This document shows positions 28,900-49,273 of a stretch of DNA of 49,787 nt, one piece after another. The DNA comes from Steroidobacter sp. GTDB taxonomy: Bacteria; Pseudomonadota; Gammaproteobacteria; Steroidobacterales; Steroidobacteraceae. The stretch covers positions 1 to 49,787 of the forward strand of contig JAICPY010000022.1 in NCBI GenBank assembly GCA_025929585.1. Direction: 5' to 3'. Made by a program: the position numbers and the translations under genes. Numbering within the stretch: the stretch's first letter is position 1; each line of letters begins with the position of its first letter. A model generated the notes under the pieces. It was given only the letters and a program-made list of their open reading frames with translations. It was not told where the DNA came from and ran no database searches.

Positions 28900-28901
28900 A
28901 C

Positions 28902-29299: not shown

Positions 29300-30034
29300 T
29301 CACACTTTCCGATCGATCCCTGAGCTGTCGGCGAGCATTTCGCGCAGCATACCCAGTGCTCTGGCATGAAGTTGCGACACCCTGCCCTTCGTCACTGCCG
29401 ACTGTTGAGCGATTGTCTGGAACTCCAACCGGCCGAAGTAGTGTCCTTTGACAATGTCTCGTTCTCGTTGCGGTAGGCGCTCTACGCACGCTCGTATGAG
29501 CTCGGAGAGTTGTTGCAGCTCCGCAGCCGCGTAGGGGTTGGCGTGAATGGTCTCGTCGATTGGTTCGATTTCATCAGAGTCGAGTATCAGGCCCAATGCC
29601 ATACCGACCGTGATGTCGATGAGGTCCTGTAGAGATGCGCGCTCCGGTTTGTCTGCAAGACTGCCTATGAGCGAGTCCATTCGCTCTGGGATGCGCGTTC
29701 TCCAAAATTCGCGTTGAGCCGAAAGCTCCGTCTCGTGACTGATCCCATTGAGTATGGACCCGCGAATTCTATGCACGGAATAGGCTTCGAACGGCACCTC
29801 CCGGCTACAGTCATAGCGATCGATGGCCTCCATCAGGCCAACCCTTCCATATTGCAGGTAATCCTCGAAGCTCACAGAGTCATCTGGGCGCAGCGCAAAG
29901 ACCTTCGCAGCTATCATGCGCGCGAGAGGCATATAGCACTCCACCAATTCCGCGCGAAGCGCCTCGGATCGAGTGCGCATAAAGCTATCCCAAAGCGCAC
30001 GAGAATTGGCTTTCGATTGCGCTGATTCCGTCAC
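29300..30034 (-). CDS. fliA: Flagellar sigma factor, sigma-28 type
   Basis: A 244-residue sigma-70-family factor of the FliA group. Region 2 includes LARMIAAKVFALRPDDSVSFEDYLQYGRVGLMEAIDRYD and FEAYSVHRIRGSILNG. Region 3 and region 4 follow, with the DNA-binding helix-turn-helix QTIAQQSAVTKGRVSQLHARAL. It would direct RNA polymerase to late flagellar promoters. The start is GTG (30034), 23 bases after the fliP stop, with no strong ribosome site. It is the last gene of the minus-strand flagellar block. No anti-sigma factor FlgM is in the window. Confidence 0.9.
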   Translation of the reverse strand: MTESAQSKANSRALWDSFMRTRSEALRAELVECYMPLARMIAAKVFALRPDDSVSFEDYLQYGRVGLMEAIDRYDCSREVPFEAYSVHRIRGSILNGISHETELSAQREFWRTRIPERMDSLIGSLADKPERASLQDLIDITVGMALGLILDSDEIEPIDETIHANPYAAAELQQLSELIRACVERLPQRERDIVKGHYFGRLEFQTIAQQSAVTKGRVSQLHARALGMLREMLADSSGIDRKV

Positions 30035-30057
30035 GGCGCGTCGATCTTACGATGGGG

Positions 30058-30828
30058 TCAGTGAAAGCTGCCAAGCAACGACCGCACGACCAATGCCCAG
30101 CCGTCGATAAGTACGAACATCAGGACTTTCATTGGCAAGGAGATGATGGTCGGAGGCACCATCAGCATACCCATCGACATCAGTACACTCGCCACCACCA
30201 GATCCAGTAAAAGGAAAGGCAGGAAGATCACGAAGCCAATCTGAAAGGCGGTTTTGAGTTCACTCAACAAGAATGCCGGAACGATGTGGATCGTCTTCAC
30301 ATCTTCTATCGTCTCGGGTTGCGGTGCGCGGGCGATCTCGATCATCAGTGCCAGATCCTTTTCACGGGTCTGACGCACCATGAACTCCCGCAGCGGACGT
30401 ACGCCTTCATTCACGGCAACTTGTAAATCTATCTTCTCCGCCATCAACGGTTGAAGGCTGTTCGCATTGATCTGCTGTAGGGCAGGACTCATCGTGAACA
30501 GAGTCAAGAACAAGGCTACGCTCAGCAGCACCATGTTCGGCGGGGTATCCTGCATGCCGAACGCGTGGCGCAACATTGACAAAACGATGATGGTTCGCGT
30601 GAAGGACGTCATCGCGATCACAACTGCCGGCAGCAAAGCGAGCACCGTGAGCAGCAGCACGATCTTCAGCGGATTTGCCAAGGATCCGGTTCCGCCATCG
30701 AGCTGCAGAGTGAGCGCACCGGGATCGGGATCTGCGGCCGCGAGTACTGCGCCGAGCGGCAGCACGCATGCAGCAATAGCGCCGATGAGGAGCATACCCT
30801 TCGAGCTGTGAGGCTTAGAGCGCGGCAT
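30058..30828 (-). CDS. fliP: Flagellar export gate protein FliP
   Basis: A 256-residue core export-gate subunit with a signal peptide, then membrane segments. Signatures: LLTVLALLPAVVIAMTSFTRTIIVLSMLRHAFGMQDTPPN and the C-terminal DLVVASVLMSMGMLMVPPTIISLPMK. It forms the FliP5-FliQ4-FliR1 gate with the products of the distant fliQ and fliR genes at the other end of this block. The start is uncertain: ATG 30828 overlaps fliO by 14 bases, ATG 30831 is next to it, and ATG 30795 (just after AAGGG) would give a 245-residue protein like E. coli FliP. Confidence 0.95.
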   Translation of the reverse strand: MPRSKPHSSKGMLLIGAIAACVLPLGAVLAAADPDPGALTLQLDGGTGSLANPLKIVLLLTVLALLPAVVIAMTSFTRTIIVLSMLRHAFGMQDTPPNMVLLSVALFLTLFTMSPALQQINANSLQPLMAEKIDLQVAVNEGVRPLREFMVRQTREKDLALMIEIARAPQPETIEDVKTIHIVPAFLLSELKTAFQIGFVIFLPFLLLDLVVASVLMSMGMLMVPPTIISLPMKVLMFVLIDGWALVVRSLLGSFH

Positions 30829-31210
30829 CATTGGTAGCTTTCGCTTTGCCGCTAAGAAGCGTGATCGCGATTCCATTTCGGCTCTCTGCCACAACGAGCT
30901 TCTGCTCGCCAATCTCGACCAGATGAACGCGAGCTCCGCCCAGCAGAGCCGCACGGTCGATGACGCGGATCTGGCCAGCACCAGTCATGGGGCCACCAAA
31001 CTGCGGTAGGTATCGTCGCAACGCTACAATCAAGGCAACTGCGATAGCCGAGATGATCACGAAAACGAGTACCACACGTCCCACACTCGGTGCAGTGACG
31101 AGATCTTGCCCTTGTGTCAGTGGTGCGCGGTCCGCAGCGTGTGCGAATGCACTGCAATGCAAGGTGACCGCGAGCAGCCAGACCCGGCGCATCACGCTCG
31201 AGTGCGACAT
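30815..31210 (-). CDS. fliO: Flagellar biosynthesis protein FliO
   Basis: A 131-residue protein with an N-terminal signal-like segment, one transmembrane helix (VGRVVLVFVIISAIAVALIVALRRYLP) and a small cytoplasmic domain with IRVIDRAALLGGARVHLVEIGEQKLVV, the FliO hallmark. FliO is the scaffold for FliP assembly. Starts: GTG at 31231 would overlap the fliN stop by four bases; ATG 31210 has TTGGA at a suitable distance and is preferred. Confidence 0.87.
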   Translation of the reverse strand: MSHSSVMRRVWLLAVTLHCSAFAHAADRAPLTQGQDLVTAPSVGRVVLVFVIISAIAVALIVALRRYLPQFGGPMTGAGQIRVIDRAALLGGARVHLVEIGEQKLVVAESRNGIAITLLSGKAKATNDAAL

Positions 31211-31227
31211 TGCGCTATCCAAGATGC

Positions 31228-31542
31228 TCACTCCTTGAGGATCTCGCTAATACGTACTCCGAAGTTATCGCCGACTGCCACAAGGGCGCCACGGGCGATC
31301 ACTTTGTCGTTCAACTTCACATCCACAGGAGCGTCGACGCTTCTGTCCAGCGCGATGACTTCATTCGCGCTCAGGGAGAAAAGTTTCGCGACCGTCATTT
31401 CGGCCCCGCCCAACGAGACACTGACTTTCACCTTTACATGCCCGACCAAATCGAGCCTCTCTCCGAGCGTGGCGGCTCCGGGCGCAGGCGCAGCACTTGC
31501 GATCGGCTGGAGATCCACCCGGCTAACTACATTCGATGCCAT
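31228..31542 (-). CDS. fliN: Flagellar C-ring protein FliN
   Basis: A 104-residue protein made of a short leader and one SpoA domain (LVGHVKVKVSVSLGGAEMTVAKLFSLSANEVIALDRSVDAPVDVKLNDKVIARGALVAVGDNFGVRI), as expected of FliN. It docks the ATPase complex through FliH and builds the base of the C-ring. The ATG follows GTCGAGGAACGAAA. It is shorter than E. coli FliN because the leader is short. Confidence 0.92.
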   Translation of the reverse strand: MASNVVSRVDLQPIASAAPAPGAATLGERLDLVGHVKVKVSVSLGGAEMTVAKLFSLSANEVIALDRSVDAPVDVKLNDKVIARGALVAVGDNFGVRISEILKE

Positions 31543-31569
31543 TTTCGTTCCTCGACTAATTAAGGCCGC

Positions 31570-32376
31570 TCAGGCGACAACACTGACTGCACGGCATGAA
31601 CCGCTGCAACCGAGCACGATATCTGCGACTCGGGCACCTGTATCGGTTGTGAGATATCCCGGGTCTCTCAACGTTTTTTGCAGGACGATGACATCGCCAC
31701 ACGACAAGTCCGCAAGCTCCTGCAAGCTGACTTCCGTATCTCCCAGCCAAGCTTCCAAACGAAGAACTTCTTCAGTTATCGCTTGTCGACGTGGTTGCAG
31801 CGGCGGCTCCGCGACAGATTTGACGCTGGGCGGCGCAAGGACCTCTAAAAGCGAGATATGCAATAGCACCCGAAACTCGGCTTCCTGTCCGAAGCGGACC
31901 GTGGCGCTCCAATAGCTCGAGGCCTCACTCTCGAGTGAACTCCTGCCTTGCCGATGCGATTTGGTGTCTAAAACTTCGATTGATGCGTCGAGCGTGCGAG
32001 CTCGAACGAGCAACTCAGCACACAAGGAGCGTGCAACCTCGGCCAATACGTCGGATTCCAGTGTGTCAGTAGCGAAGCCGCCCGTACCATACGGTGAGCT
32101 CGACCCGAGTAGAGTCGCGACCAGCCTCGCCGGAACCTCCACGGTCATGAGCACGCTTCGAGAGTTGCTATGCGCTGTAGCTATGCACCCTTCCGATAAT
32201 TCTCGGGCTTTAGCGGCTTGGAGCCAGTCCTCTGCAGCGTTCACGCTGACCGCTTGCGAGCCGTGCGACCACTTCGCCTGCCAGCTTTCAATGCCAAGTT
32301 TGAGAGCCCGCGCCGCTGCATTGCGACGCGACTCGCCTATCATGAGATACGGACGGTGCTCGTGCGGCCCACTCAT
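31570..32376 (-). CDS. fliM: FliM-like C-ring protein without CheY-binding N-terminus
   Basis: A 268-residue protein, shorter than usual FliM (about 330). The C-terminal 70 residues form a SpoA domain (LRLEAWLGDTEVSLQELADLSCGDVIVLQ...RVADIVLG). The middle has a FliM/SctQ-like region (ATLLGSSSPYGTGGFATDTLESDVLAEVARSL). The N-terminal peptide LSQxEIDALL that binds CheY-P in FliM is absent: the protein begins MSGPHEHRPYLMIGESRRNA. It could equally be described as a SctQ-like protein. Its start overlaps the flgE stop by four bases (ATGA). Position between flgE and fliN is that of fliM in standard operons. Confidence 0.8.
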   Translation of the reverse strand: MSGPHEHRPYLMIGESRRNAAARALKLGIESWQAKWSHGSQAVSVNAAEDWLQAAKARELSEGCIATAHSNSRSVLMTVEVPARLVATLLGSSSPYGTGGFATDTLESDVLAEVARSLCAELLVRARTLDASIEVLDTKSHRQGRSSLESEASSYWSATVRFGQEAEFRVLLHISLLEVLAPPSVKSVAEPPLQPRRQAITEEVLRLEAWLGDTEVSLQELADLSCGDVIVLQKTLRDPGYLTTDTGARVADIVLGCSGSCRAVSVVA

Positions 32377-33584
32377 CGGCCACCGTCCATTGCAAGGAGC
32401 GTCTGGATCAACTCGTTGGCTACCGAACTGATCTGAGAGCTCGCTTGGTAGCCTCGCTGCATGATGATCAGATCCGTGAATTGCTGGGTGAGCTCCACGT
32501 TCGACATCTCGAGCTGACTGCCGATGATTCGGCCAAACCCGGAGCTCAGCGCGGTTCCCAAGATGGGTTGTGCGGCATCGGCGGTAACGAACAGACCCGC
32601 ACCGAGTGCGCGCAGCTGCTCGGGTGCGTCGAATTGCGCAAGCAACAGAGAACCTGCAATCTGCGTCTCGCCATTGGAATAGGTAAGCTTGAGCTGCCCA
32701 CGCTCATCGAATTCAGTCCTACTCAACGAACCGACTTGCAAACCATCCTGCCGTAACATTTGCAGTTGTGAGGCAGTGCTGGCGACGGGGCTCGTGACAC
32801 CCGCAAAAGAGCCGGGGGATCCGAAGTTGAAGACCACCTCGAAATCGCTCGTCACTGCAGAATCGACGGTAATAGTTATGCTCGAGGAGCCTTCGGCCGG
32901 AGTGCCATCTTCGTTGAATACAACCGCACCGCTGCCGAACACAGCGTTCTCGGGTCCAAGAACTTCGACTGTCCAGCTCAATGGGTTCGAGGCATCGCGG
33001 ACTAAACGCGCTCGCAACGCTATGGCGGTCCCCGATGAGTCATACACCGTGAGATTCGGCAGCTCATAAGTCGTCGTCGTTCCGCCACGAGCCAACGTTC
33101 CGACAATCGTTACCTCTGTCGTTGCGCGAGGCGGGTGGACGCGTGCGGAGTCAATGTCGAAGAATCCGACCGAGGAGCTCTCCGTGCTCACAACGATCGG
33201 CGCCCCTGTCCCGCGCTCCACTAGCACACCCTCGTCGTTGAATTCGAACTGTCCTGCGCGCGTATAGATATATTGACCGTCCTTGTTGAGCACGAAGAAG
33301 CCGCTGCCATCGATCGCTGCATCCAGAGAATTGCCGGTATCTCGCAATTCGCCTTGACGGAATGAAATGCTCGATCCCTGCACCTGGACGCCAGCACCAC
33401 CCGGTCTTGAACCTGCGTCACGAGACCCAGCAGTGCCCAGATGCCGATACACAATTTCTCGAAACAGCGGGTCCGAAACCTTGAACCCCGGCGTATTTAG
33501 GTTCGCTACATTGTTGCTGATCAGATCCAGTCCTTGAGAATAGGCCGTCATACCCGACAAGCCCGTATAGATCGCTCCAAACAT
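32373..33584 (-). CDS. flgE: Flagellar hook protein FlgE
   Basis: A 403-residue hook subunit. N-terminal rod/hook signature MFGAIYTGLSGMTAYSQGLDLISNNVANLNTPGFK, the internal FlgE domain with GELRDTGNSLDAAIDGSGFFVL, and the C-terminal heptad helix NVELTQQFTDLIIMQRGYQASSQI. Length is close to E. coli FlgE, so the hook domains are all present. The ATG follows CGATAGGAGTCCCATT. It lies 26 bases after flgD, its hook-cap partner. Confidence 0.95.
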   Translation of the reverse strand: MFGAIYTGLSGMTAYSQGLDLISNNVANLNTPGFKVSDPLFREIVYRHLGTAGSRDAGSRPGGAGVQVQGSSISFRQGELRDTGNSLDAAIDGSGFFVLNKDGQYIYTRAGQFEFNDEGVLVERGTGAPIVVSTESSSVGFFDIDSARVHPPRATTEVTIVGTLARGGTTTTYELPNLTVYDSSGTAIALRARLVRDASNPLSWTVEVLGPENAVFGSGAVVFNEDGTPAEGSSSITITVDSAVTSDFEVVFNFGSPGSFAGVTSPVASTASQLQMLRQDGLQVGSLSRTEFDERGQLKLTYSNGETQIAGSLLLAQFDAPEQLRALGAGLFVTADAAQPILGTALSSGFGRIIGSQLEMSNVELTQQFTDLIIMQRGYQASSQISSVANELIQTLLAMDGGR

Positions 33585-33610
33585 AATGGGACTCCTATCG
33601 AACCTGACAG

Positions 33611-34021
33611 TTATCTAACTAAAACGACTTCCGACAGTCGCACATCGACAAACGTTGAGCCGTTCGAATTGATCGTTAGTCTCGGTTCGCCTGTCCGAAA
33701 AGAAATTGCCCCTACTGTGCCCACGACGGAAGCCCCTTGCGCGGACTGCATCTCGACAGAGCGTCCGATGAGCCCCACAGCTTGATCAGCAGCTTGCATC
33801 GCCAACAAAGTGTCGATCTTGTCGCTCTGCTGCCGATTGATCTCGAGCGCGCTGAACTGCGCCAACTGGGCGACGAACTGTTGGTTGTCGACCGGTTTGA
33901 GGGGGTCTTGGAATCGCAATTGCGACAGCAGAATTCGCAGGAAATCTTCTTGGGCAATACCTGCATTGCGCGGCACATCGCCACCGGCCTCACCCAACAC
34001 ACCGATTGCATCTACTGCCAT
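33611..34021 (-). CDS. flgD: Short flagellar hook-cap protein FlgD
   Basis: A 136-residue FlgD. The conserved N-terminal region is complete (QEDFLRILLSQLRFQDPLKPVDNQQFVAQLAQFSALE), followed by AVGLIGRSVEM and a short beta segment. FlgD usually has 220 or more residues with an Ig-like and a second beta domain; here only a short piece remains, and the next gene follows at once, so no frameshift is involved. The ATG at 34021 has GGGGAGAG eight bases before it; the TTG two codons upstream is less likely. Confidence 0.9.
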   Translation of the reverse strand: MAVDAIGVLGEAGGDVPRNAGIAQEDFLRILLSQLRFQDPLKPVDNQQFVAQLAQFSALEINRQQSDKIDTLLAMQAADQAVGLIGRSVEMQSAQGASVVGTVGAISFRTGEPRLTINSNGSTFVDVRLSEVVLVR

Positions 34022-34023
34022 AT

Positions 34024-34515
34024 TCAACTCTCCCCATTGATCTTTGTATGCTCAACGATATCGATCGACAAACGCGCGAGCGCATGTTCGTCCAACCGTT
34101 TCTGGTCTCGGCGGGCCAGATCTTTGCTGGCCTCCACTGCTCGACGCTCGCCCAAGCGTTCAACGACCGAAAGCTGTTCGAACTGTTCGAGGACCTGCGA
34201 ATGCGCCTTATCGGTTACCTCGATCGACGCCTGCAACGCGCTCTGGGCTTCTGACAACTCGTCCGCTTTACGAGAGGCGAAGTCTGCGAGCCGGCGCAGT
34301 GAATCCAGCGACAGCGTACGTCCGGAATTCAGCTCGCCACGAGCAAACTCGTGCAGCTCGGTGATGCTAGAGGAGACCTCATCCGCGCGTGCCTCGCGTT
34401 CCATCGTGACCTTCTTGGCCTGCACGTACTGCGTTTGCGCCTCATCGAGCTCCACAGCGCGCCACCGTTGAAGTGTGCGCAGTTGGCGCGATGATTTCGG
34501 GTCTTCCAAGCCCAT
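34024..34515 (-). CDS. fliJ: Flagellar export protein FliJ
   Basis: A 163-residue, highly charged, mostly coiled-coil protein (RTLQRWRAVELDEAQTQYVQAKK..., ASRKADELSEAQSALQAS), in the fliJ position right after fliI. FliJ is the stalk that links the FliI hexamer to FlhA. The ATG overlaps the fliI stop by one base (TGATG) and follows AGGAGAAGG; a GTG one codon upstream is also possible. Sequence identity is low, as usual for FliJ, so the call rests on coiled coil and position. Confidence 0.85.
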   Translation of the reverse strand: MGLEDPKSSRQLRTLQRWRAVELDEAQTQYVQAKKVTMEREARADEVSSSITELHEFARGELNSGRTLSLDSLRRLADFASRKADELSEAQSALQASIEVTDKAHSQVLEQFEQLSVVERLGERRAVEASKDLARRDQKRLDEHALARLSIDIVEHTKINGES

Positions 34516-35834
34516 CACACCTTCTCCTTCATGATCGCTTGCAGGCGCTGCATCGCCGAGGCACGAGACTCCGTTTCATCTGGTCGTTGCGCGATGAATT
34601 TCTCGAGTTCCGGTACCAATTTTATCGCTCGATCCACTTGAGCATTCGATCCCGCGCGGTATGCGCCCACCTCGATGAGGTCACGCGAGGACTCATACTG
34701 CGCAATGATTCGGACTGCGTCGTCGATCAACCGTCGCTCTTGCTCGGAGACGATCGAAGTGGTGAGTCGGCTGATGCTCTGTGTTATGTCGATTGCTGGA
34801 AAGCGAGCTCTCTGCGCCACAGCGCGCGAGAGCACGATGTGTCCATCGAGAATCGATCGCACCGTATCAGCGATGGGATCTGCCATATCATCGCCTTCCA
34901 CCAATACCGTATAGAGCGCCGTGAGTGAGCCGCCATTTGCCGCTACTCCGCCTCGCTCCAACAACTTGGGCAACAGTGCGAACACCGAAGGAGTGTACGC
35001 GCGCGCTGTGGGTAGCTCGCCACTCGCTAGCCCGATCTCCCGCTGCGCCATCGCAATGCGGGTCACCGAGTCCATGGTGAGGCACACGTGCAGTCCCTGA
35101 TCTCGGAAATATTCTGCGATAGCTGTCGCCAAGAATGCGGCGCGCCTTCGCACTAACGCGGGCTGATCGGATGTCGCTGCGACGACAATGGAGCGCGCTC
35201 GCGAGTCGGCAGATAAGCCGTTCTCAACGAAGCTCTTTACTTCTCTGCCGCGCTCGCCGATGAGTGCGATCACTGAAACGTCGGCTTTGACTTGACGCGC
35301 AATCATTCCGAGCACCGTGCTCTTCCCCACGCCGCTACCGGAGAAGATGCCTACACGCTGGCCGCGAGCGATCGTGAGAAGCGCATCGATCGCGCGGACA
35401 CCGGATTCGAGGACTTCGGAGATCGTTCCGCGATGCAATGGATTCAATGGTGGTGGATAGAGGGGATACTTCGTTCCGCTGAGCGCAAGCGGTTTCCCAT
35501 CAAGAGGCAAGCCGAACCCATCGATCACGCGCCCCAACAGGTGTTCACCGGCGTTCGCGTGCGCTGTTTCACCCGTCGCCATCACCTCGGATCCGGATTC
35601 GATCCCGATCAAATCCTCGTACGGCATCAACAGCACACGCCCCTCGGTGAATCCAACCACTTCGGCAAAGCTGCGTCCGCCACGAGCGCGAGAAGAAATC
35701 TCGCAAATCTCGCCTAGGCGTGCATCCGGTCCTTCGGATTCCACCGTGAGGCCCACAGATCGACGAATGCGTCCCGTACGTTTGACCCAATCACTGGAAC
35801 GGATCGTATCGAGCAGTCGAGAAGCTTGGCTCAT
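34515..35834 (-). CDS. fliI: Flagellar export ATPase FliI
   Basis: A 439-residue F1-beta-like ATPase. Walker A GSGVGKST (166-173), IGERGREVKSFVE, Walker B LTMDSVTRIA and SGELPTARAYTPSVFALLPKLLERGG are all canonical. It energises flagellar export with FliH and FliJ. The start overlaps the fliH stop by four bases (ATGA). The frame continues upstream within fliH, which is a shadow. Confidence 0.97.
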   Translation of the reverse strand: MSQASRLLDTIRSSDWVKRTGRIRRSVGLTVESEGPDARLGEICEISSRARGGRSFAEVVGFTEGRVLLMPYEDLIGIESGSEVMATGETAHANAGEHLLGRVIDGFGLPLDGKPLALSGTKYPLYPPPLNPLHRGTISEVLESGVRAIDALLTIARGQRVGIFSGSGVGKSTVLGMIARQVKADVSVIALIGERGREVKSFVENGLSADSRARSIVVAATSDQPALVRRRAAFLATAIAEYFRDQGLHVCLTMDSVTRIAMAQREIGLASGELPTARAYTPSVFALLPKLLERGGVAANGGSLTALYTVLVEGDDMADPIADTVRSILDGHIVLSRAVAQRARFPAIDITQSISRLTTSIVSEQERRLIDDAVRIIAQYESSRDLIEVGAYRAGSNAQVDRAIKLVPELEKFIAQRPDETESRASAMQRLQAIMKEKV

Positions 35835-38606: not shown

Positions 38607-38616
38607 ATATATATAT
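38605..38616. repeat. (AT)6 dinucleotide tract at the fliF start
   Basis: Six AT units occupy the place where the fliF ribosome site would be and include the A and T of the ATG start. If translation begins at the TTG 39 bases upstream, the tract is inside the coding region and a change of one unit would shift the frame. Confidence 0.6.
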
Positions 38617-38641
38617 GTATCGGTTTTAGGGGCTAGCGGGA

Positions 38642-39390: not shown

Positions 39391-39394
39391 TTGA

Positions 39395-39757: not shown

Positions 39758-39782
39758 GATTCTTCCGTTTGTACCTAATGTA

Positions 39783-40892: not shown

Positions 40893-40903
40893 TCTGGCGT
40901 CCG

Positions 40904-42176: not shown

Positions 42177-42178
42177 GA

Positions 42179-42964
42179 TCAGCGATACAAGCTATTCGTG
42201 ATCGAGAGCATCTGATCCGCCGCTTGCACGACGCGCGCATTCATCTCGAACGCACGCTGAGCCACCATCATCGTGACTAGCTCATCGGCGAGCTGCACGT
42301 TGGAGCTTTCGACGAATCCCTGACGCAGCAATCCCATGCCAAGCTCGCCGGGAGCTGCAACTTGCGGTTCGCCCGCCGCCGCCTCGGCCACGTAAAGGTT
42401 GCTACCTGCGGCGCGAAGAGCGCTTGGATTCGAGAAAGCCACTAGATCGATCTGTCCCACTTCGATGGGCTCTTCCTGATCGCTCGCTAGAACGCTCACC
42501 CGACCATCGGGAGAGATCTGAATCTCGCGGCTATCAGACGGAATCTCGATGCGCGAGGCGAGTGCGGAACCATCGGCCGCAGCCAATAGATTGTCCCCGT
42601 TCACCGCCAGTTTCCCGGCTCGCGTATACGCTGGCGTGCCGTCTGCGCGGATCACTTCGATGAATCCCACGCCGTCTATTGCCAGATCGAGCGGCTCACC
42701 GGATTGCTTGAGCTCGCCGGCGAGAAGCGACAGCGTGACTTCGCCTGCCACTCCTGAACCTCGTAGGCCATTTGCGAATCCGCGCGTGTTCGAGACTCCA
42801 TCCAAGCCACTCGTAGCGGCAAGCGCGGCAGTTACCTCGGAGAAGCTCACGACGCCACGTCGAAAACCCACCGTATTCACATTCGCAAGGTTGTGCGCAA
42901 TCGTATCGATCTGCAGCTGCTGACCGCGCATCCCGGTCGCACCGACATACAATGCATCGAGCAT
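42179..42964 (-). CDS. flgG: Distal rod protein FlgG
   Basis: A 261-residue rod protein: MLDALYVGATGMRGQQLQIDTIAHNLANVNTVGFRR at the start, GVAGEV...LAIDGVGFIEVIRADGTPAYTRAGKL in the middle, QGFVESSNVQLADELVTMMVAQRAFEMNARVVQAADQML at the end. Length equals the usual FlgG. The ATG follows ACAGGACCAATCAA. Confidence 0.96.
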   Translation of the reverse strand: MLDALYVGATGMRGQQLQIDTIAHNLANVNTVGFRRGVVSFSEVTAALAATSGLDGVSNTRGFANGLRGSGVAGEVTLSLLAGELKQSGEPLDLAIDGVGFIEVIRADGTPAYTRAGKLAVNGDNLLAAADGSALASRIEIPSDSREIQISPDGRVSVLASDQEEPIEVGQIDLVAFSNPSALRAAGSNLYVAEAAAGEPQVAAPGELGMGLLRQGFVESSNVQLADELVTMMVAQRAFEMNARVVQAADQMLSITNSLYR

Positions 42965-42990
42965 TTGATTGGTCCTGTTAGTGTTGTTCG

Positions 42991-43710
42991 TTAACCGATC
43001 TTGCCGAGCTCGCTGATGGCCTTTTCCATCATCTGGTCATAGCCACGCACGAAGCGTTGCGATGCTTCGAAGTGCCGCAAGGTCTCCATCAACTGCACCA
43101 TCTCGCCGACGGGCGTGACGTTCGAGGTCTCCAAGAAACCTTGGCGAACGGCGCCGTAACCGTCGTTGCTCGCAAGCACACCGCTTGCTGCGGCATACAT
43201 GCCCTCGCCTAGGTACTGTAGTTGCGCATCGGGGGCGACCTGCACGATTTGCAGTTGCCCGATAACTTCATCCTCCACACTGACCGTCCCATCTGTGCTG
43301 ATCACGGGTGAGCTCGCACCAATCAAGAGTGGACCGCTCGTACCCATAACGGGATGACCGGATGCAGAGGTGAGCATGCCTTGCGCGTTGACCCGGAAGT
43401 CACCGCGCCGCGTGAGTGCGATGCCGGCAGGCGATTGAACTGCGAAGTAGCCGCTTCCCTCGATCGCAACATGAAATGTTTCGCCAGTCGCCCGAAGCGT
43501 GCCTGGCTGCGAATCGATGGCCACGCCGCTTGAGAGTGCATTCTCGGAGCGCTCCATTTCCGTCGCGATCTGAGAATAGCCCACAGAGCTGAGCGGAATT
43601 TGTCGGCGATACGCCGTCACTTCGGCGTTCGCGATGTTCTGACCGATCAATCGCAACGCTTCGGCGTCGGCACGCATCGCACTTTCGATCAACGCAATGG
43701 CTTCACTCAC
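42991..43710 (-). CDS. flgF: Proximal rod protein FlgF
   Basis: A 239-residue flagellar basal-body rod protein of the FlgF/FlgG family. It has IGQNIANAEVTAYRRQIP near the start, GETFHVAIEGSGYFAVQSPAGIALTRRGDFRVNAQGMLTSASGHPVMG in the middle and RQGFLETSNVTPVGEMVQLMETLRHFEASQRFVRGYDQMM at the end. Upstream position to flgG identifies it as FlgF. The start is GTG at 43710, overlapping the previous stop by eight bases, after a strong ribosome site GAGGAGGG. Confidence 0.92.
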   Translation of the reverse strand: MSEAIALIESAMRADAEALRLIGQNIANAEVTAYRRQIPLSSVGYSQIATEMERSENALSSGVAIDSQPGTLRATGETFHVAIEGSGYFAVQSPAGIALTRRGDFRVNAQGMLTSASGHPVMGTSGPLLIGASSPVISTDGTVSVEDEVIGQLQIVQVAPDAQLQYLGEGMYAAASGVLASNDGYGAVRQGFLETSNVTPVGEMVQLMETLRHFEASQRFVRGYDQMMEKAISELGKIG

Positions 43711-43969
43711 GGGTTCGACCCTCCTCGATATCCACACGCATGACATGCACGAGCAGCGCCGCCATGACAGGAAATAATTCGCGCCCGATCGGTGCATCGA
43801 TCGGCACCCGATAAAGATCCCGCACGAGCTTCGCGTCCTTGACCACGTGTACGGAGTCGTCTGCTCGCGCAAGCGCTGCCTCGGCCTCCTTGCCGCTCCC
43901 TTTGAGGATGACGCGAGGCGCACCTGCGTCTAGCTCATAGGCAATTCCGACTACGCGCTTCTCGTCCAT
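43703..43969 (-). CDS. FlhB C-terminal-like export-switch protein (FhlB/FlhX type)
   Basis: An 88-residue protein matching only the cytoplasmic C-terminal domain of FlhB: RVVGIAYELDAGAPRVILKGSGKEAEAALARADDSVHVVKDAKLVRDLYRVPIDAPIGRELFPVMAALL. It has no NPxH cleavage site and no membrane part, like FhlB/FlhX proteins that can replace the cleaved FlhB fragment. The full-length flhB is in the same block. ATG follows TGAGGTAACG. It lies between the fliK-like gene and flgF, which fits a role in hook-length/export switching. Confidence 0.88.
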   Translation of the reverse strand: MDEKRVVGIAYELDAGAPRVILKGSGKEAEAALARADDSVHVVKDAKLVRDLYRVPIDAPIGRELFPVMAALLVHVMRVDIEEGRTRE

Positions 43970-43976
43970 CGTTACC

Positions 43977-45095
43977 TCAGACTAGCCGGCTCAACGTATC
44001 GGCATTCAACACGTGCTCGACGATGTGCCTCGCCGCTCGCGATGTATCGACCTGCAGATCGTATCTGACCGACTCTACGTTCCAACCCAATCGCCCCGCT
44101 AACTCGCGTGCTTCATCCACCCGTGCTGCCAACGCATGGTTCGCTAGCGCGGAATCAGTCTTGATCGCAATGGACAATCGCTCGCCGAATGCTTGAGCGG
44201 TGATCTCGACATGACCAAGTTTCGCAGTACTGAAGCTCATCACGAGTCGTCGTATGCCTTGCCCTGGCTCGACTTCGCGGCGGTTCCGGAAATACACCAG
44301 GTCGAGCTCGACGAGCTCATCCCCGATCATTACGGGAAGCACTCCATAGCTATAGCCGACACTGCCTTCGTCTTGTGTGTTGAGCACGCGATGTGCCAGA
44401 TCGCGCCGAGTGCCTGAATCGTTCGAATCAGTATTCGCGCTGAATGCTCCGGCATCGCTCGTGTCTACCTCACTCTCTGTCGGCACCGGAGATTCGGAGG
44501 AATCCAATGCATCACCGAGCGCTTGAGCCAGATCCTCGCTCGACGCGAACGCTTGGGCATCTGATGCAGTGACCTCTGATTGCGACCACACCTGGCTCGC
44601 GTAGAGCGCTTTCAAGGTTGCACTTTCGACCGGCAATGCCAGTTTGCCGAGGTACATGCCGCTTACCGCCATCACCGCAGGATTCCCAGCGGTATTCATC
44701 AGCTCACGAATGCTTTCGCGCTGCGTACGATCCAGCGCTATGGCGTACTTGCGCTCGAGCGTGCCGATCTCGTCCGCGGTGGTCTCGTGTTCTTCTAGTC
44801 GCTGGCCGAGATCAACAGCCTCTTCAGTACTGACGTACTTGAGCTCGAGCTTCTCACCAACCGAGACAACCGCCGCACGAACTTTAGAACCTACCTCTAA
44901 GCGGACCGAGCTCTCAACTACATGCTCGGAGTTCGCAAGGGACACTAGGTAGTGCCGCTCGTCCAGACGCCTGGAGACTTTCAAGCTTACGAATTCGCCT
45001 GGGGCGAATTGCTTTTCGAGGGTCTGTCTGTGCTCGTTGGTCCGCCCGTGAGTTGCGGACGTTGGATGCGCGCTGCTCAAGTGCGAGATGCTCAT
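43977..45095 (-). CDS. FliK-like hook-length control protein
   Basis: A 372-residue protein. The N-terminal 270 residues are hydrophilic, with an Asp/Ser-rich linker (DSSESPVPTESEVDTSDAGAF). The C-terminal 120 residues resemble the FliK C-terminal domain: LVMSFSTAKLGHVEITAQAFGERLSIAIKTDSALANHALAARVDEARELAGRLGWNVESVRYDLQ. FliK senses hook length and switches export specificity at FlhB. The neighbour on the 3' side is an FlhB-C-like protein, supporting this. The start overlaps the flhA stop by four bases. Confidence 0.78.
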   Translation of the reverse strand: MSISHLSSAHPTSATHGRTNEHRQTLEKQFAPGEFVSLKVSRRLDERHYLVSLANSEHVVESSVRLEVGSKVRAAVVSVGEKLELKYVSTEEAVDLGQRLEEHETTADEIGTLERKYAIALDRTQRESIRELMNTAGNPAVMAVSGMYLGKLALPVESATLKALYASQVWSQSEVTASDAQAFASSEDLAQALGDALDSSESPVPTESEVDTSDAGAFSANTDSNDSGTRRDLAHRVLNTQDEGSVGYSYGVLPVMIGDELVELDLVYFRNRREVEPGQGIRRLVMSFSTAKLGHVEITAQAFGERLSIAIKTDSALANHALAARVDEARELAGRLGWNVESVRYDLQVDTSRAARHIVEHVLNADTLSRLV

Positions 45096-47137
45096 ACCTT
45101 CACCACGCCGAAGGCTCGCAAGCTGATGTGATTGGATATCTCATTCAACGAGAGCACCGATAATTGCGGAACGAGCCGCTCGGTGAACTTGCGAACATGG
45201 CGGCGCAAATTCGGCGCGCACAGCAGCACCGGGCGTACATTGCCGCGAGCCATGCGTTCCACTTCCTCGGACAGCTTGCGCAGAATCTGCTCGGCGAAGC
45301 GCGGGTCGAGCACCAACGAGGTTTTCTCCTCGGTTCCACGCACCGCGCCAGCCAGCGATTGCTCGACCGACGGATCGAAGGTCAAAACATGAATTTCACC
45401 TTTGCCGTCGGCGAGCTGCTGGCAAATCACGGGTGCTAGTCGCTCGCGTGCCAATTCGGTCAATTGCTCGACATCACGCGTTTTCCCACCCGCATCTGCA
45501 AGTACTTCCAAGATTGCATCGATGTTGCGAATCGAAACGCGCTCTTTGACGAGGCCCTGCAACACCCGTTGTATGTCGCCCATCGAGAGAACCTTCGGAA
45601 TGAGCTCTTCCACCAATGTCGCTTGCTGCTCCTTCACGCGAGCGATGAGTCGTTCCGTCTCTACACGCGTGATCATGTTGTGCGCGTTCTGACGCAGGAC
45701 TTCGGAGACGTGTGTCAGGAATACGGTCCCACTATCTACGACCGTGTAGCCGCTGCTCTTCGCAGCTTGCCTGCGCTCGTCCGTGATCCAGATGGCGGGC
45801 AACCCATATGCGGGATCGAAGGCCGTGACGCCATCGATCGGCGGTCGTGTACCCCCTGGATTGATCGCTAACCATCGATCCGCGAAAACCTCGCCTTCGG
45901 CGATACGCGCGCCGAAGATTCTCACTTCATACCTATTCGCAACCAGTCGCTTGTCATCGCGAACACGCACGAGCGGCAGAACGACGCCCATGTCGAGCGC
46001 ATATTGCTTGCGGATGCCGCTCAGCTTTTCGGCCAGCACATCCCCGCCTTCTCCGACGATTGGCATAAGTGCGCTGCCGATGACTATCTCGACAGGATCG
46101 ATCTGCATCGCCTTGTAAAGGTCATCCCCCGCGGCATCGGGCTTGGGGCTTGCGGCGGATTCTTTGGGCTGGATTTGCAGCGACTTCTTGTGTGCAAACC
46201 AAAATAGGAGCGCGGCCCCAATAGCAAGCACTGCAACTGGGAAGACTGGGATGCCAGGCAGGAAGGCAAGCCCGACGAGAACGATGGCGACGATAGCGAT
46301 GGTCTTGGGATAGGCGAGTACCTGCCTCGTGACTTCTTCGCCGAGTCGTGCATCGGAAGCGGCGCGTGTGACGATGATGCCTGTACCCGTCGCAACTACC
46401 AGCGCCGGAATCTGAGTCACGATGCCATCGCCGACGGTGAGCAACGTATAGGTCTGCAGCGCCTCGCCCCAAGACATCCCCGCTTGGGCCACGCCGATGG
46501 TCAATCCGCCGATGATGTTGACGAGGATGATCAGGATGCCCGCGATCGCATCGCCTTTGACGAATCGGCTCGCCCCGTCCATCGCTCCATAAAAGTTGGC
46601 CTCGCGCTCGATCTGCTTGCGTCGATCACGCGCCTCGTTTTGATCGATGAGTCCCATGTTGAGGTCGGCATCGATGCTCATCTGTTTACCGGGCATGCTA
46701 TCGAGCGTGAAGCGCGCTGCGACTTCTGCGACGCGCTGCGCACCATTCGTGACGACGACGTATTGCACGACGATCAGCACGATGAACACGATCAAACCAA
46801 TCACATAGTTGCCGCCCACCACGTAATTGCCGACCGCGCCGATCACTTGACCTGCATTGGCTTCCGAAAGGATCAGGCGCGTCGCAGAGACGTTCAATCC
46901 AAGACGAAAGAGCGTGGCCACCAAGAGCAGTGAGGGAAATGTCGAGAACTCGAGCGGCCGACCCATGTAGAACGTGAGTAGCAGGATCAAAAGCGCGAAG
47001 GAGAAGTTCGCGATCAACAAGAAATCCAGCAGACCGGGCGGAATCGGCGCGAATAGCACGAGCAAGATGCCGGCAAGCATGCCGACCAGCGCAAGCTCGG
47101 TTTGATCGCCGAACACATTGCGAAGCCACGCGATCAT
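45092..47137 (-). CDS. flhA: Flagellar export gate protein FlhA
   Basis: A 681-residue FHIPEP protein with eight membrane segments in the first 320 residues, the FHIPEP loop with AARFTLDSMPGKQMSIDADLNMGLIDQNEARDRRKQIEREANFYGAMDGASRFVKGDAIAG, and the cytoplasmic ring domain with ITDERRQAAKSSGYTVVD and NAHNMITRVETERLI. All functional regions are present. It couples export to proton flow and docks substrates. ATGA overlap with flhB. Confidence 0.97.
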   Translation of the reverse strand: MIAWLRNVFGDQTELALVGMLAGILLVLFAPIPPGLLDFLLIANFSFALLILLLTFYMGRPLEFSTFPSLLLVATLFRLGLNVSATRLILSEANAGQVIGAVGNYVVGGNYVIGLIVFIVLIVVQYVVVTNGAQRVAEVAARFTLDSMPGKQMSIDADLNMGLIDQNEARDRRKQIEREANFYGAMDGASRFVKGDAIAGILIILVNIIGGLTIGVAQAGMSWGEALQTYTLLTVGDGIVTQIPALVVATGTGIIVTRAASDARLGEEVTRQVLAYPKTIAIVAIVLVGLAFLPGIPVFPVAVLAIGAALLFWFAHKKSLQIQPKESAASPKPDAAGDDLYKAMQIDPVEIVIGSALMPIVGEGGDVLAEKLSGIRKQYALDMGVVLPLVRVRDDKRLVANRYEVRIFGARIAEGEVFADRWLAINPGGTRPPIDGVTAFDPAYGLPAIWITDERRQAAKSSGYTVVDSGTVFLTHVSEVLRQNAHNMITRVETERLIARVKEQQATLVEELIPKVLSMGDIQRVLQGLVKERVSIRNIDAILEVLADAGGKTRDVEQLTELARERLAPVICQQLADGKGEIHVLTFDPSVEQSLAGAVRGTEEKTSLVLDPRFAEQILRKLSEEVERMARGNVRPVLLCAPNLRRHVRKFTERLVPQLSVLSLNEISNHISLRAFGVVKV

Positions 47138-48219
47138 CCCGCGACCTCCACTCGCGCCTGAGCGACTCGGCGTTGGCCGATTTCGGCATACACCCGTGCG
47201 ACGTCAACGAAAGCTTCCGGTGGGATCGGCTGGTCGATCTGCGTGCGCTTGAAGAGTAACCGCGCGAGCTTGCGCCGTTCAAAGCGCGGAATGCCGTGCT
47301 TGGCAGCGATGGTGCGCATTTCTGCTGCCCAATTGTCAGCCCCTTTTGCGAGCACGACCGGCGCGTTCATGCGGTCGCGGTCGTAACGCAACGCAATTGC
47401 CAAATGCTCCGGATTCGTGATGAGCACGTCTGCTTCGGGCACGCGGTTGAGGGAGCGCGCTTGTTTGCGATTCTCCCGCTGCAACTCACGGATCTTGGCG
47501 CGAATCAGCGGATCGCCCTCGCGACGCTTGACCTCTTCCTTCACTTCGCGAGTGCTCATCATCATTTGACGCTTGAACTGCCAGCGCACGAACGCTAGAT
47601 CGAGCAATCCGACGATGACCAGCGCAAGCCCTAAGCGAAACAACAGCGCCATCGCGCTGTTGCCTAACCACAGCATCTGCCCGGCGCTATCGCTCGCCGC
47701 AATCGTCGGCAACGTCGGCCAGATCGCGAAGAAGAATGCAAAAGCGATCAGCCCAAAGAACCCCAGTTTGACGAAGCTCTTGAATGCCTCGAAGAGCATC
47801 TTCTTGTTGTAGATTCTCTTGAAGCCGGCGATGGGATTGATGCGCTCGAACTTCGGCTTTAGAGGATCGGCGCTGAACACGGGCCCTGTCTGAATGATGT
47901 TCGAGATCACCGCAAAGACAAATCCCGCACCGGCAAATGGCAGCACGAGCGCGAGCGCTTCGCTGGCTATCACGCTAGCGGTCCCTACGAAGCTTGCATG
48001 GTCGAGCTGCAGCTGCGCCGCACTCGCGAACAACGCCGCACATAGTTCGCAGAGCCTTTCCCACTGCGCACTTCCCCATATCGCCAATGCCATCAGCAAG
48101 CCGCATACGACCACGAAGGTATTGAAGTCGAGGCTCTTAGCGACCTGCCCTCGTTTCTTCGCTTCGCTGAGCTTGAAGGGCGTCGCCTGTTCGGTGCGAT
48201 TTTGTTCTTGTTCTTGCAT
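47134..48219 (-). CDS. flhB: Flagellar export switch protein FlhB
   Basis: A 361-residue protein with four membrane helices in the first 215 residues, the linker KEEVKRREGDPLIRAKIRELQREN and the autocleavage site at residues 269-272. The site reads NPEH rather than the common NPTH; the cleaving Asn-Pro and His are conserved. The ending lacks the long Pro-rich tail of E. coli FlhB. ATG 48219 is two bases after the fliR stop. Confidence 0.96.
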   Translation of the reverse strand: MQEQEQNRTEQATPFKLSEAKKRGQVAKSLDFNTFVVVCGLLMALAIWGSAQWERLCELCAALFASAAQLQLDHASFVGTASVIASEALALVLPFAGAGFVFAVISNIIQTGPVFSADPLKPKFERINPIAGFKRIYNKKMLFEAFKSFVKLGFFGLIAFAFFFAIWPTLPTIAASDSAGQMLWLGNSAMALLFRLGLALVIVGLLDLAFVRWQFKRQMMMSTREVKEEVKRREGDPLIRAKIRELQRENRKQARSLNRVPEADVLITNPEHLAIALRYDRDRMNAPVVLAKGADNWAAEMRTIAAKHGIPRFERRKLARLLFKRTQIDQPIPPEAFVDVARVYAEIGQRRVAQARVEVAG

Positions 48220-48221
48220 TG

Positions 48222-48989
48222 TTAGCGCCCGCTTGCGAGCTCTCCCCAATACGAGAACGTAGTGCCGAACAGATTGCCGAGGATGGCCTCGCCAACGCGA
48301 ATCGAGAGCGCGAGCCCCGTCAAGCCGAGCATGATCTTCACCGCGAAGCCGAGTACGAACACATTGAGCTGCGGCATGCTGCGCGCGAAGACGGCCATCG
48401 CCACATCGGCGAGTAAGAGCGTGAACATGATCGGCGCGGCTAATGCCAAACCGAAGGTGAACATCACACTCGAGTGCTTGAGGATCAGAACCGGATCCAA
48501 CTCAAGGAGTGATGTGCCCGGAGGCATGGACTGTATCGAGGCCGCGAGCGCTCGGATGAGCAGCAAGTGACCATCCATCGCGAGGAAGCCGGCGATCGCG
48601 ACCATGCCGAAGACACTGCCAACCAGCGGCGAGACAACCTGAGTTGCTGGATTCAATACGCTGGCTGCACCGAATCCCATCTGGATATCCAGCGCACGTC
48701 CAGCAACTTGCGTAGCCGCGTAGGCGATGAGAAACCCGAATGCGAACGCAAGCCCGAAGAAGATCTCCCCGAATGCCGCAAACATGAGCGTCGCCAAATT
48801 GGTGATGGTGACGGCGGGAATCGGCGCAGAAGCGACCAAAAACGCGCTCAGCCCCAAAACCAAGATAATTCGAGCAGAAGCAGGCACCTGACTCGGTCCA
48901 AATACAGGCGCGATCATTGTCGCGCTCGCGACGCGAACGGACACCAGCAGCGTGGCAATGAGCCAGCCTATGTCGATACGCAACGACAT
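48222..48989 (-). CDS. fliR: Flagellar export gate protein FliR
   Basis: A 255-residue, six-helix membrane protein: IAPVFGPSQVPASARIILVLGLSAFLV, GEIFFGLAFAFGFLIAYAATQVAGRALDIQMGFGAASVLNP and ALAAPIMFTLLLADVAMAVFARSMPQLNVFVLGFAVKIMLGL. This is the single FliR subunit of the export gate. It lies eight bases after fliQ. Confidence 0.96.
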   Translation of the reverse strand: MSLRIDIGWLIATLLVSVRVASATMIAPVFGPSQVPASARIILVLGLSAFLVASAPIPAVTITNLATLMFAAFGEIFFGLAFAFGFLIAYAATQVAGRALDIQMGFGAASVLNPATQVVSPLVGSVFGMVAIAGFLAMDGHLLLIRALAASIQSMPPGTSLLELDPVLILKHSSVMFTFGLALAAPIMFTLLLADVAMAVFARSMPQLNVFVLGFAVKIMLGLTGLALSIRVGEAILGNLFGTTFSYWGELASGR

Positions 48990-48997
48990 GGCGCGGC

Positions 48998-49273
48998 TCA
49001 GAAGTAGCTGGGAATGCCGGAGATGAGCTCAGTCGCGAACTGCGACAACGTGCTGAGCATCCATCCGCCCAGCACCAGAAGAGTCGCAACCGCAGCGAGA
49101 ATTTTTGGAACGAAGGTAAGAGACGTTTCTTGAATCTGCGTAACGACTTGCAGAATGCTGACGGCTAAACCGACCAGCGTGGAAATCCCAATCACCGGTG
49201 CAGCGATAATCACAGCCGTCCAGAGCATTTCGGACGTCAACGTCATCGCGGCATCCGCGCCTAAGTCTCCCAT
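48998..49273 (-). CDS. fliQ: Flagellar export gate protein FliQ
   Basis: A 91-residue, two-helix protein with LTSEMLWTAVIIAAPVIGISTLVGLAVSILQVVTQIQETSLTFVPKILA and a second hydrophobic helix, characteristic of FliQ. ATG 49273 follows TCGAGGGAGGTTGTC, one of the strongest ribosome sites in the block, fitting its place as the first gene. The frame is open further upstream but without start signals. Confidence 0.95.
   Translation of the reverse strand: MGDLGADAAMTLTSEMLWTAVIIAAPVIGISTLVGLAVSILQVVTQIQETSLTFVPKILAAVATLLVLGGWMLSTLSQFATELISGIPSYF

What the first reader, a model, noticed from the sequence alone, without database searches (positions are those of the whole stretch)
29300..49273. Complete flagellar export apparatus and hook, but a reduced rotor: possible motor-less or non-switching flagellar machine
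In one 26-gene block the export gate (FlhA, FlhB, FliO-P-Q-R), ATPase complex (FliH-I-J), rod, rings and hook are all intact. Every part that couples to rotation is altered. FliF lacks its FliG-binding tail, the FliG-like protein has 175 residues and no torque helix, and FliM has no CheY-binding peptide. MotA/B, FliL and chemotaxis genes are absent from the window. Seen directly: lengths, gene order, missing motifs. Known: roles of the FliG C-terminal domain, the FliF tail and the FliM N-terminus. Inferred: the machine may export or display hook-like structures without rotating, or use a different rotor.
Basis: partly seen in the sequence, partly recalled or inferred. Interest (0 to 1): 0.85.

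Follow-up and report, generated by a model that had tools for sequence, protein, structure and literature searches.

The report
Motorless flagellum linked to giant proteins
This DNA encodes a second flagellum-like export machine that keeps the secretion channel, rod, rings and hook but lacks the parts that make a flagellum turn, and in other bacteria and on plasmids the same machine sits next to genes for enormous repeat proteins that it may export.

Summary
The 26-gene block is real and is not the cell's motility flagellum: the same genome has an ordinary flagellar set with full FliG, FliM, flagellin and stators on other contigs. The block's 175-aa "FliG" matches the FliG N and middle domains only (hhalign score 36.5, E 2e-4; 0 of 200 shuffles as high) and lacks the torque domain. 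Its FliM-like protein lacks the CheY-binding peptide and FliM middle domain. FliF lost its linker but keeps a short C-terminal segment, so "no FliG-binding tail" is too strong. The block occurs in 4 of 369 sampled class genomes (four families) and on three Burkholderiales plasmids or megaplasmids; the seven FlhAs group together (100/100). One holder, 97% complete, has no flagellin and no FliG torque domain. All seven holders carry a giant RHS-type protein (up to 12,948 aa) with a shared N-terminus, within about 1-5 kb of the block in six. The one new holder found by a blind search (G357) had already ranked next for the giant. Such giants also occur without a detected block. Best reading: a mobile, non-rotating flagellar-type T3SS dedicated to exporting giant RHS proteins. 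Non-rotation is well supported; export of the giants is inferred.

The parts
29300..30034 (-). FliA/WhiG-type sigma factor of the block
   Evidence: Sigma70_r2 and r4 Pfam; FliA_WhiG subfamily 1.7e-28, below that model's cut-off; same place next to fliP in G322, G357, Variovorax, Undibacterium, B. ubonensis, not seen in G278
30058..30981 (-). FliP export-gate protein (true start probably inside this ORF, which overlaps FliO)
   Evidence: 56-64% to the FliPs of the six other blocks
30815..31231 (-). FliO
   Evidence: position, and 24% to Undibacterium FliO at 8e-6
31228..31542 (-). FliN
   Evidence: FliMN_C 1.6e-20
31570..32376 (-). FliM-like protein without CheY-binding peptide and without recognisable FliM middle domain (SctQ-like anatomy)
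   Evidence: only FliMN_C, 4e-5; alignment with primary FliM; Pfam FliM domain found in the primary FliM
32373..33584 (-). hook protein FlgE
   Evidence: FlgEFG subfamily 1.4e-75 over cut-off; FlgE models below their cut-offs
33611..34027 (-). hook cap FlgD
   Evidence: 43-49% to FlgD of the other blocks
34024..34518 (-). FliJ
   Evidence: Pfam FliJ 3.7e-10
34515..35942 (-). FliI ATPase
   Evidence: 45-60% to the FliIs of the other blocks
35831..36628 (-). FliH
   Evidence: Pfam FliH 8.4e-11
36625..37152 (-). mini-FliG: FliG N and middle domains only, no torque (C-terminal) domain
   Evidence: hhalign of six mini-FliGs to FliG 9-190 of 340, score 36.5, E 1.8e-4, probability 48%, 0 of 200 column shuffles as high; FliG_C 0.12 only
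37149..38645 (-). FliF MS-ring protein with shortened C-terminus
   Evidence: TIGR00206 5e-64 over cut-off; tail comparison
38642..38947 (-). FliE
   Evidence: tblastn to the other blocks
38944..39423 (-). rod protein FlgC
39395..39805 (-). rod protein FlgB
39783..40907 (-). P-ring protein FlgI
   Evidence: 41-53% to FlgI of the other blocks
40904..41497 (-). L-ring protein FlgH
41490..42176 (-). P-ring chaperone FlgA
   Evidence: Pfam ChapFlgA 1e-19
42179..42964 (-). distal rod FlgG
   Evidence: TIGR02488 over cut-off
42991..43923 (-). rod FlgF (ORF runs upstream of the likely start)
   Evidence: TIGR02490 6e-42, below cut-off; FlgEFG subfamily over cut-off
43703..43969 (-). stand-alone FlhB C-terminal domain
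   Evidence: Pfam Bac_export_2 2e-7; orthologue in G322
43977..45095 (-). FliK-like hook-length protein
   Evidence: Flg_hook 1.3e-4, below cut-off; orthologue in G322 at the same place
45092..47137 (-). FlhA export gate
   Evidence: TIGR01398 over cut-off, injectisome SctV model below its cut-off; the seven blocks group together, 100/100
47134..48249 (-). FlhB
48222..48989 (-). FliR
48998..49273 (-). FliQ (contig ends 514 bases beyond its start)
28219..28899 (+). TPR protein (TPR226; true start probably near 28387)
   Evidence: homologues on the block contig in G278, G322, G357 and Variovorax
28986..29279 (+). small conserved protein of unknown function beside sigma (conserved part of ORF 28710-29279)
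   Evidence: tblastn to G322 and G357 beside the block; no Pfam match

Best explanation
The block encodes a non-rotating, flagellar-type type III secretion machine: MS-ring, export gate, ATPase, rod, P and L rings, and a hook with a cap and a ruler-like protein. In place of a torque-generating rotor it has a minimal docking ring: mini-FliG (FliG N+M only) bridging FliF to a SctQ-like FliM plus FliN. It has its own FliA-like sigma factor. Its dedicated late substrate, in place of flagellin, is most likely a giant RHS-type protein whose conserved N-terminal leader is read by the gate, with the TPR proteins as candidate chaperones. The giant would be passed through the rod and hook to the cell surface or to neighbouring cells. 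Shown by computation: anatomy, domain losses, grouping, spread and gene linkage. Inferred: that it does not rotate in vivo, that the giants are the cargo, that the TPR proteins are chaperones, and that the target is another cell.
For: Anatomy. Mini-FliG is FliG N+M: (0 of 200 shuffles reach the score). No FliM middle domain in the four separate FliM-likes scanned (window, Variovorax, Undibacterium, G322) nor in the B. ubonensis ORF, where one 363-aa frame carries two SPOA domains, as injectisome SctQ does (SctQ recalled). Of the primary system's proteins used as tblastn queries, FlgE, F, G, H, I, FlhA, FlhB, FliI and FliP hit all seven block regions, while FlgJ, FlgL, flagellin, FliD, FliM, FliL, MotA of C265 and both MotBs hit none (full FliG none; several names by eye). 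G322, 97% complete: no FliG_C, no Flagellin_N. FlhA: the seven blocks group together, 100/100, apart from the primary FlhA of the same genome (unrooted). Spread: 4 of 369 class genomes, three plasmid-collection replicons, 0 of 59 near relatives. Giant: present in all 7 holders, about 1-5 kb from the block in six; in the own genome on another contig directly after a TPR392 gene. RHS repeats in the five giants scanned. TPR392 homologues in 6 of 7. Blind step: the only new block genome (G357) was the next-ranked genome for the giant, and the two turned out to lie 4 kb apart.
Against: No experiment shows secretion, hooks or absence of rotation. Giants of this leader type also occur without a block: Undibacterium KW1 plasmid pUKW01 (whole record viewed, no block annotated) and two Eleftheria plasmids (about 40 kb viewed of each) (their chromosomes not examined). 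A looser relative of that N-terminus occurs in giants of genomes with no detected block (G150, G063, G232 and others). So the leader may be a structural part of RHS proteins, and the giants may have another route. tblastn no-hits are weak evidence: the primary FliJ, FliK and FliO also hit no block although blocks have such genes. G322 has a MotB-like/MotA-like gene pair, and the own genome has two MotB genes. The B. ubonensis mini-FliG is placed by position and weak similarity only (no blastp hit). Mini-FliG and FliM-like AlphaFold models were too poor to use (pLDDT 47). The own giant lies on a different contig, so its link to this block is by analogy.
Confidence: 0.6

Rival explanations
1. 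A second, unusual but rotating flagellum: the block builds its own basal body and hook, borrows flagellin, hook-associated proteins, stators or even FliG/FliM from the primary system, and swims or swarms.
For: The own genome has an intact primary set that could lend parts; G278 also has a full FliG and flagellins elsewhere.
Against: G322 keeps the block without any FliG_C or flagellin. The short FliG recurs in all seven holders. The block FlhA is remote from the primary one (41% identity).
Confidence: 0.12
2. A non-rotating hook-basal body whose product is the hook itself (adhesin, conduit or sensor); the giants are neighbours because both ride the same island or are co-regulated, and are exported by another route.
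For: FlgE, FlgD and a FliK-like gene are intact. Giants of the same leader type exist without a block on pUKW01.
Against: Linkage holds in six hosts with the giant on different sides of the operon (fliP/sigma side in five, fliQ side in Undibacterium), which suggests selection for co-residence rather than one inherited accident.
Confidence: 0.2
3. A decaying flagellar cluster in which the rotor genes eroded first.
For: Short FliG and FliM-like proteins; sporadic distribution; FlgI annotated in two pieces on pUYM01; mini-FliG sequences diverge fast (only 3 columns invariant in six).
Against: All 26 window ORFs are open; the same reductions recur in seven holders with 49-59% FlhA identity to the window; three mini-FliGs share 23 invariant positions.
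Confidence: 0.05

Closest known systems
Bacterial flagellum (hook-basal body of the motility organelle)
   Same: Export gate, FliHIJ, FliF, rod, P/L rings, hook, cap, FliA-like sigma; FlhA passes the flagellar model cut-off and not the SctV one
   Different: FliG lacks the torque domain, FliM-like lacks CheY peptide and middle domain; no hit to the primary flagellin, FlgL, FliD, FlgJ, MotB or FliL in seven block regions
Injectisome (NF-T3SS)
   Same: Protein export without rotation (inferred here); SctQ-like reduction of FliM and, in B. ubonensis, a single two-SPOA protein
   Different: Retains FlgH/FlgI rings, rod and FlgE hook. Recalled: injectisomes lack FliG and use a secretin and needle
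Myxococcales NF-T3SS ('Myxo'; needleless T3SS*)
   Same: Flagellum-derived T3SS without motility parts; passages of Abby and Rocha 2012 (PMC3459982) say it lacks FlgBCDEK, FliEG, FlgH and MotAB
   Different: The present system keeps FlgBCDE, FliE, FlgH and a mini-FliG, so it looks like a separate reduction
T3SS-associated FliO operons in Pseudomonadota (PMC12248157; sections 6 and 7 and passages)
   Same: [quoted passage not shown] Luteimonas arsenica without canonical flagellar genes; possibly the same or a related system
   Different: The parts read describe no gene content, short FliG or giant proteins; whether it is this system could not be checked
RHS/YD-repeat polymorphic toxins
   Same: RHS repeats in the five linked giants scanned; the related giant on pUKW01 is followed by genes annotated as polymorphic toxin-type HINT domain and SMI1/KNR4 family
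   Different: Passages of PMC3482391 name the type III system among toxin routes and note an RNase gene tied to flagellar operons in Firmicutes, asking whether the flagellar system delivers it; they do not describe a flagellar-type route for RHS giants

Membership tests
Motility flagellum | Flagellar export gate and FliHIJ | tested here: met
Motility flagellum | Rod, P/L rings, hook | tested here: met
Motility flagellum | FliG with torque-generating C domain | tested here: not met
   FliG_C only E 0.12 in the window protein, no match over cut-off in the six; homology stops at FliG residue 190
Motility flagellum | FliM with CheY-binding peptide and middle domain | tested here: not met
Motility flagellum | Own flagellin and hook-associated proteins | tested here: not met
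   no hit to primary flagellin, FlgL or FliD in seven block regions; primary FlgK hits only by its first 35-68 residues, E 2e-6 to 2e-4, at rod or hook genes where checked; G322 genome has no Flagellin_N
Motility flagellum | Dedicated MotA/B stators | tested here: inconclusive
   no hit in block regions with MotA of C265 and both MotBs (the C82 MotA frame was not reliably tested); a MotB/MotA-like pair elsewhere in G322 and two MotB genes in the own genome
Injectisome (NF-T3SS) | Gate protein of the SctV family | tested here: not met
   SctV model 608.8 bits, cut-off 692.25; FlhA model 792.9, cut-off 772.1
Injectisome (NF-T3SS) | Secretin and needle | not tested
   no dedicated search made; FlgH and FlgI are present instead
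RHS polymorphic toxin (the linked giant, not the block) | RHS repeats | tested here: met
   own giant, B. ubonensis, G278, Variovorax and Undibacterium giants (whole or part) all match RHS_repeat; G322 and G357 giants too cut to scan
RHS polymorphic toxin (the linked giant, not the block) | C-terminal toxin domain plus immunity gene | tested here: inconclusive
   no toxin Pfam in the one complete giant scanned, B. ubonensis; the 196-aa gene overlapping its end matches no family; HINT and SMI1/KNR4 annotations follow the related pUKW01 giant

The most novel reading that the evidence does not exclude
A third kind of type III secretion machine, neither propeller nor injectisome: a horizontally mobile, motorless hook-basal body that uses a torque-less FliG as scaffold and secretes giant RHS-type proteins of about 5,000 to 13,000 residues through the hook, probably for contact with or attack on other cells.
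Probability: 0.5. Interest if true: 0.92.

Novelty: new variant of a known kind. Interest (0 to 1): 0.84.

Why it matters
It would be a living step between flagellum and secretion machine that kept the rod, rings and hook but dropped the motor, which makes the exaptation question directly testable. It would also name an export route for some very large bacterial proteins, carried in part on plasmids, one of them typed conjugative, and give a natural separation of FliG's scaffold role (N+M) from its torque role (C).

Tried and rejected
FliF-based scan of genome contigs: 28 loci, mostly Desulfobacterota and Myxococcota. 23 of 28 show a full-length FliG beside FliF; the other five (L036, L048, L051, L055, L056) show no FliG hit, three to five of them being cut short. 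None was recognised as a block member, so no named chromosomal relatives came from it. The G296 hit (E 1.8e-4) was dropped: no block gene near it and no hit with the six-sequence model.

Order-wide search around G322: 1 of 41, G322 itself. A three-sequence mini-FliG profile matched only the FliG middle domain (E 7e-4, probability 26%) before the six-sequence one reached N+M. AlphaFold of mini-FliG and FliM-like from single sequences: pLDDT 47 each, not used. PDB profile search with mini-FliGs: nothing significant, FliG 3hjl at E 2.3; FliM-like against PDB: nothing. Composition: G+C 0.56-0.60 in the block, 0.55-0.59 in its flanks, so no sign of recent arrival. Alignment A3 held a truncated G278 row and was replaced by A5.

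The coincidence of block and giant (1.3e-9 if the four block genomes were the top four of 369 by chance) is not used as a probability: the link was first noticed on the plasmids, and three of the four genomes had already been checked; only G357 was blind. Of the 82 of 369 genomes with a giant-query match at E 1e-3, most matches in the part of the list shown start after residue 90 of the query, in the repeat region. G150 (E 1e-23, 34%) is close behind G357 (8e-24), but its start is of a different type and it has no detected block.
Full report
What is there. The window is an entire contig of a draft genome (5.13 Mb, 297 contigs, 97.6% complete). Between 29300 and 49273, all on the minus strand, lie 26 open reading frames for a sigma factor, the export gate (FlhA, FlhB, FliO, P, Q, R), FliH-I-J, FliF, FliE, rod (FlgB, C, F, G), rings (FlgH, FlgI and chaperone FlgA), hook (FlgE, cap FlgD, FliK-like protein), an extra FlhB C-terminal domain, FliN, a FliM-like protein and a 175-aa FliG-like protein. 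The contig ends 514 bases past the FliQ start, so absence from the window is weak evidence by itself.

A second, ordinary flagellum in the same genome. A FliG of 340 aa with N, M and C domains is on contig C277 next to FliH-like and FliI-like frames. FliM of 335 aa with CheY-binding peptide and middle domain, and FliN, are on C133 with FliL-, FliO-, FliP-, FliR- and FlhB-like frames (the last names by eye and similarity). Rod, hook and ring genes, flagellin, FlgL and a FliD-like frame are on C134; FlhA, a FliA-like sigma and a MotA/MotB pair are on C265 (partly by eye). The genome has two Flagellin_N proteins, both in that C134 cluster, so the block has no flagellin set of its own. Thirteen congeners and 46 other relatives have no match to the mini-FliG (0 of 59 besides the genome itself).

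The rotor parts. A profile of six mini-FliGs aligns collinearly over 155 columns to residues 9-190 of FliG, the N and middle domains (hhalign score 36.5, E 1.8e-4, probability 48%; best of 200 column shuffles 23.4; reversed profile 17.5). One of the six, B. ubonensis, is placed by gene position and weak similarity. No member has a FliG_C match over cut-off. So the protein is a FliG that stops before the torque domain. In the FliM-likes only the SPOA domain is recognisable (four scanned), and the CheY-binding peptide of the primary FliM has no counterpart. In B. ubonensis FliM-like and FliN are one frame with two SPOA domains, as in injectisome SctQ (SctQ recalled), though the public annotation starts that gene later. 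FliF: ordinary relatives end with a linker of roughly 60-80 aa and a terminal IIKNWIQEG-like segment; the six block FliFs inspected lack the linker but keep a short charged segment after the last membrane segment, with W at the matching place in four of six (window and B. ubonensis lack it). I read this as a shortened, not absent, FliG-binding tail; this is by eye.

Relatives. The window mini-FliG alone hit 4 of 369 class genomes, of which G296 was spurious. The six-sequence model hit 4 of 369: the own genome, G278, G322 and the new G357, from four families; the G357 frame has 181 aa. The block is also on Variovorax sp. PDNC026 (1.24-Mb record), Undibacterium sp. YM2 plasmid pUYM01 (175 kb) and Burkholderia ubonensis pMSMB2035 (299 kb, typed conjugative). 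Gene order is conserved, with small differences such as FliH moved in Undibacterium and no sigma seen in G278. FlhA proteins of all seven group together against ten ordinary FlhAs, including the genome's own primary one, with 100/100 support in an unrooted tree. G322 (97% complete, about 550 contigs) has no FliG_C and no flagellin; G278 has both elsewhere; the other holders besides the own genome were not tested for this. G322 does have a MotB-like/MotA-like pair on C308, so absence of every stator-like protein cannot be claimed. With the primary system's proteins as tblastn queries, FlgE, F, G, H, I, FlhA, FlhB, FliI and FliP hit all seven block regions, FlgD six, FliR five; FlgJ, FlgL, flagellin, FliD, FliM, FliL, MotA (C265), both MotBs and full FliG hit none. 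The primary FliJ, FliK and FliO also hit none, so a no-hit is only suggestive for fast-changing proteins.

The giant proteins. Beside the block in B. ubonensis (4,897 aa), Variovorax (6,182 aa from its likely start) and Undibacterium (12,948 aa) is a giant gene with a related N-terminus that starts MVAIV. The B. ubonensis N-terminus used as a query found N-terminal relatives in the own genome (contig C185, E 9e-55), G278 (two, one on the block contig) and G322 (on the block contig). RHS repeats were found in the five giants scanned in whole or part, DUF6531 in two of them (own and Variovorax), a weak LysM match in B. ubonensis. In 369 class genomes the three holders known by then ranked first, G357 fourth (8e-24) and G150 fifth (1e-23). 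Only afterwards did the six-sequence mini-FliG model reveal a block in G357, and its contig carries the start of a giant 4 kb from the sigma gene with TPR392 between. Distances between block and giant in the six linked cases are about 1 to 5 kb. In the own genome the giant follows directly after TPR392 on a 9-kb contig that ends inside the giant gene. TPR392 homologues (26-32% identity): 6 of 7, none in 40 kb around the Undibacterium block; TPR226 homologues: 5 of 7; the small 28986-29279 protein: 3 of 7 at E 1e-4.

Against over-reading. In the plasmid collection six records hold the leader-type giant (E 2e-32 or better; a seventh match is weak), and three of them hold the block. On Undibacterium KW1 pUKW01 the whole record was viewed and no flagellar block is annotated (the collection's gene tables are incomplete); around the two Eleftheria giants about 40 kb each shows none, and block proteins have no tblastn hit in those three 40-kb stretches. 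Chromosomes were not searched. On pUKW01 the giant is followed by genes annotated as polymorphic toxin-type HINT and SMI1/KNR4, which favours a toxin-like role for the family. More distant giants with a similar start occur in genomes with no detected block. So linkage is strong from the block's side (7 of 7) and weaker from the giant's side.

Literature. Ten full-text searches were made; no listed title or abstract start describes this gene set or flagellar-type export of RHS giants. Abby and Rocha 2012 (PMC3459982; passages) describe a different motility-less form in Myxococcales that lacks FlgBCDEK, FliEG, FlgH and MotAB. [quoted passage not shown] PMC9380563 (abstract and passages) is about a different inner-membrane structure. 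PMC3482391 (passages) reviews polymorphic toxin export and notes an RNase gene tied to flagellar operons in Firmicutes. Other papers were seen in search listings only.

Verdict. A non-rotating flagellar-type secretion machine is the best reading (about 0.85 for no rotation, in my judgement); export of the linked giants about 0.6. It is a new variant of flagellar-type T3SS, a distinct and evidently mobile lineage.

Noticed in passing
L030, L031, L032 (G013, G003, G001): Three of five congeners tested carry a second full-length but divergent FliG (about 340 aa), which points to another, different second flagellar system in the genus.
   Followed up: no
window 43703-43969: A free-standing FlhB C-terminal domain gene inside the block, also in G322 but not seen in the other blocks.
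   Followed up: partly
L075 784-39630 and L072 5944-7035: Undibacterium pUYM01 devotes 38.8 kb of 175 kb to one 12,948-aa giant; the next ORF looks HINT-like by eye.
   Followed up: no
L154 4528-7298 (pUKW01): Genes annotated as polymorphic toxin-type HINT domain and SMI1/KNR4 family follow a related giant on a plasmid without the block.
   Followed up: partly
L077 18586-19176: 196-aa gene overlapping the end of the B. ubonensis giant by four bases, no Pfam match: possible immunity protein.
   Followed up: partly
G278:C34 22544-26689 (L021): A 1381-aa protein with a lipoprotein-like start lies between fliP and the giant in G278.
   Followed up: no
L072 16146-17278: FlgI on pUYM01 is annotated as two pieces; either a real break or a sequencing error.
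   Followed up: no
L125-L132 (G150, G063, G232, G158, G087, G338, G364): Related large proteins (1,200-4,250 aa, several cut) with a similar G-x-GLG start, in seven of eight loci preceded by a 540-1,250-aa ORF, without a detected block.
   Followed up: partly
L122 2108-3765 (G322 C308): MotB-like then MotA-like gene pair in a genome without flagellin and without FliG_C.
   Followed up: partly
window 22270-23790 and L117 5449-7344: Two similar large proteins, M48-peptidase-like by eye, one in the window and one next to TPR392 and the giant on C185.
   Followed up: no
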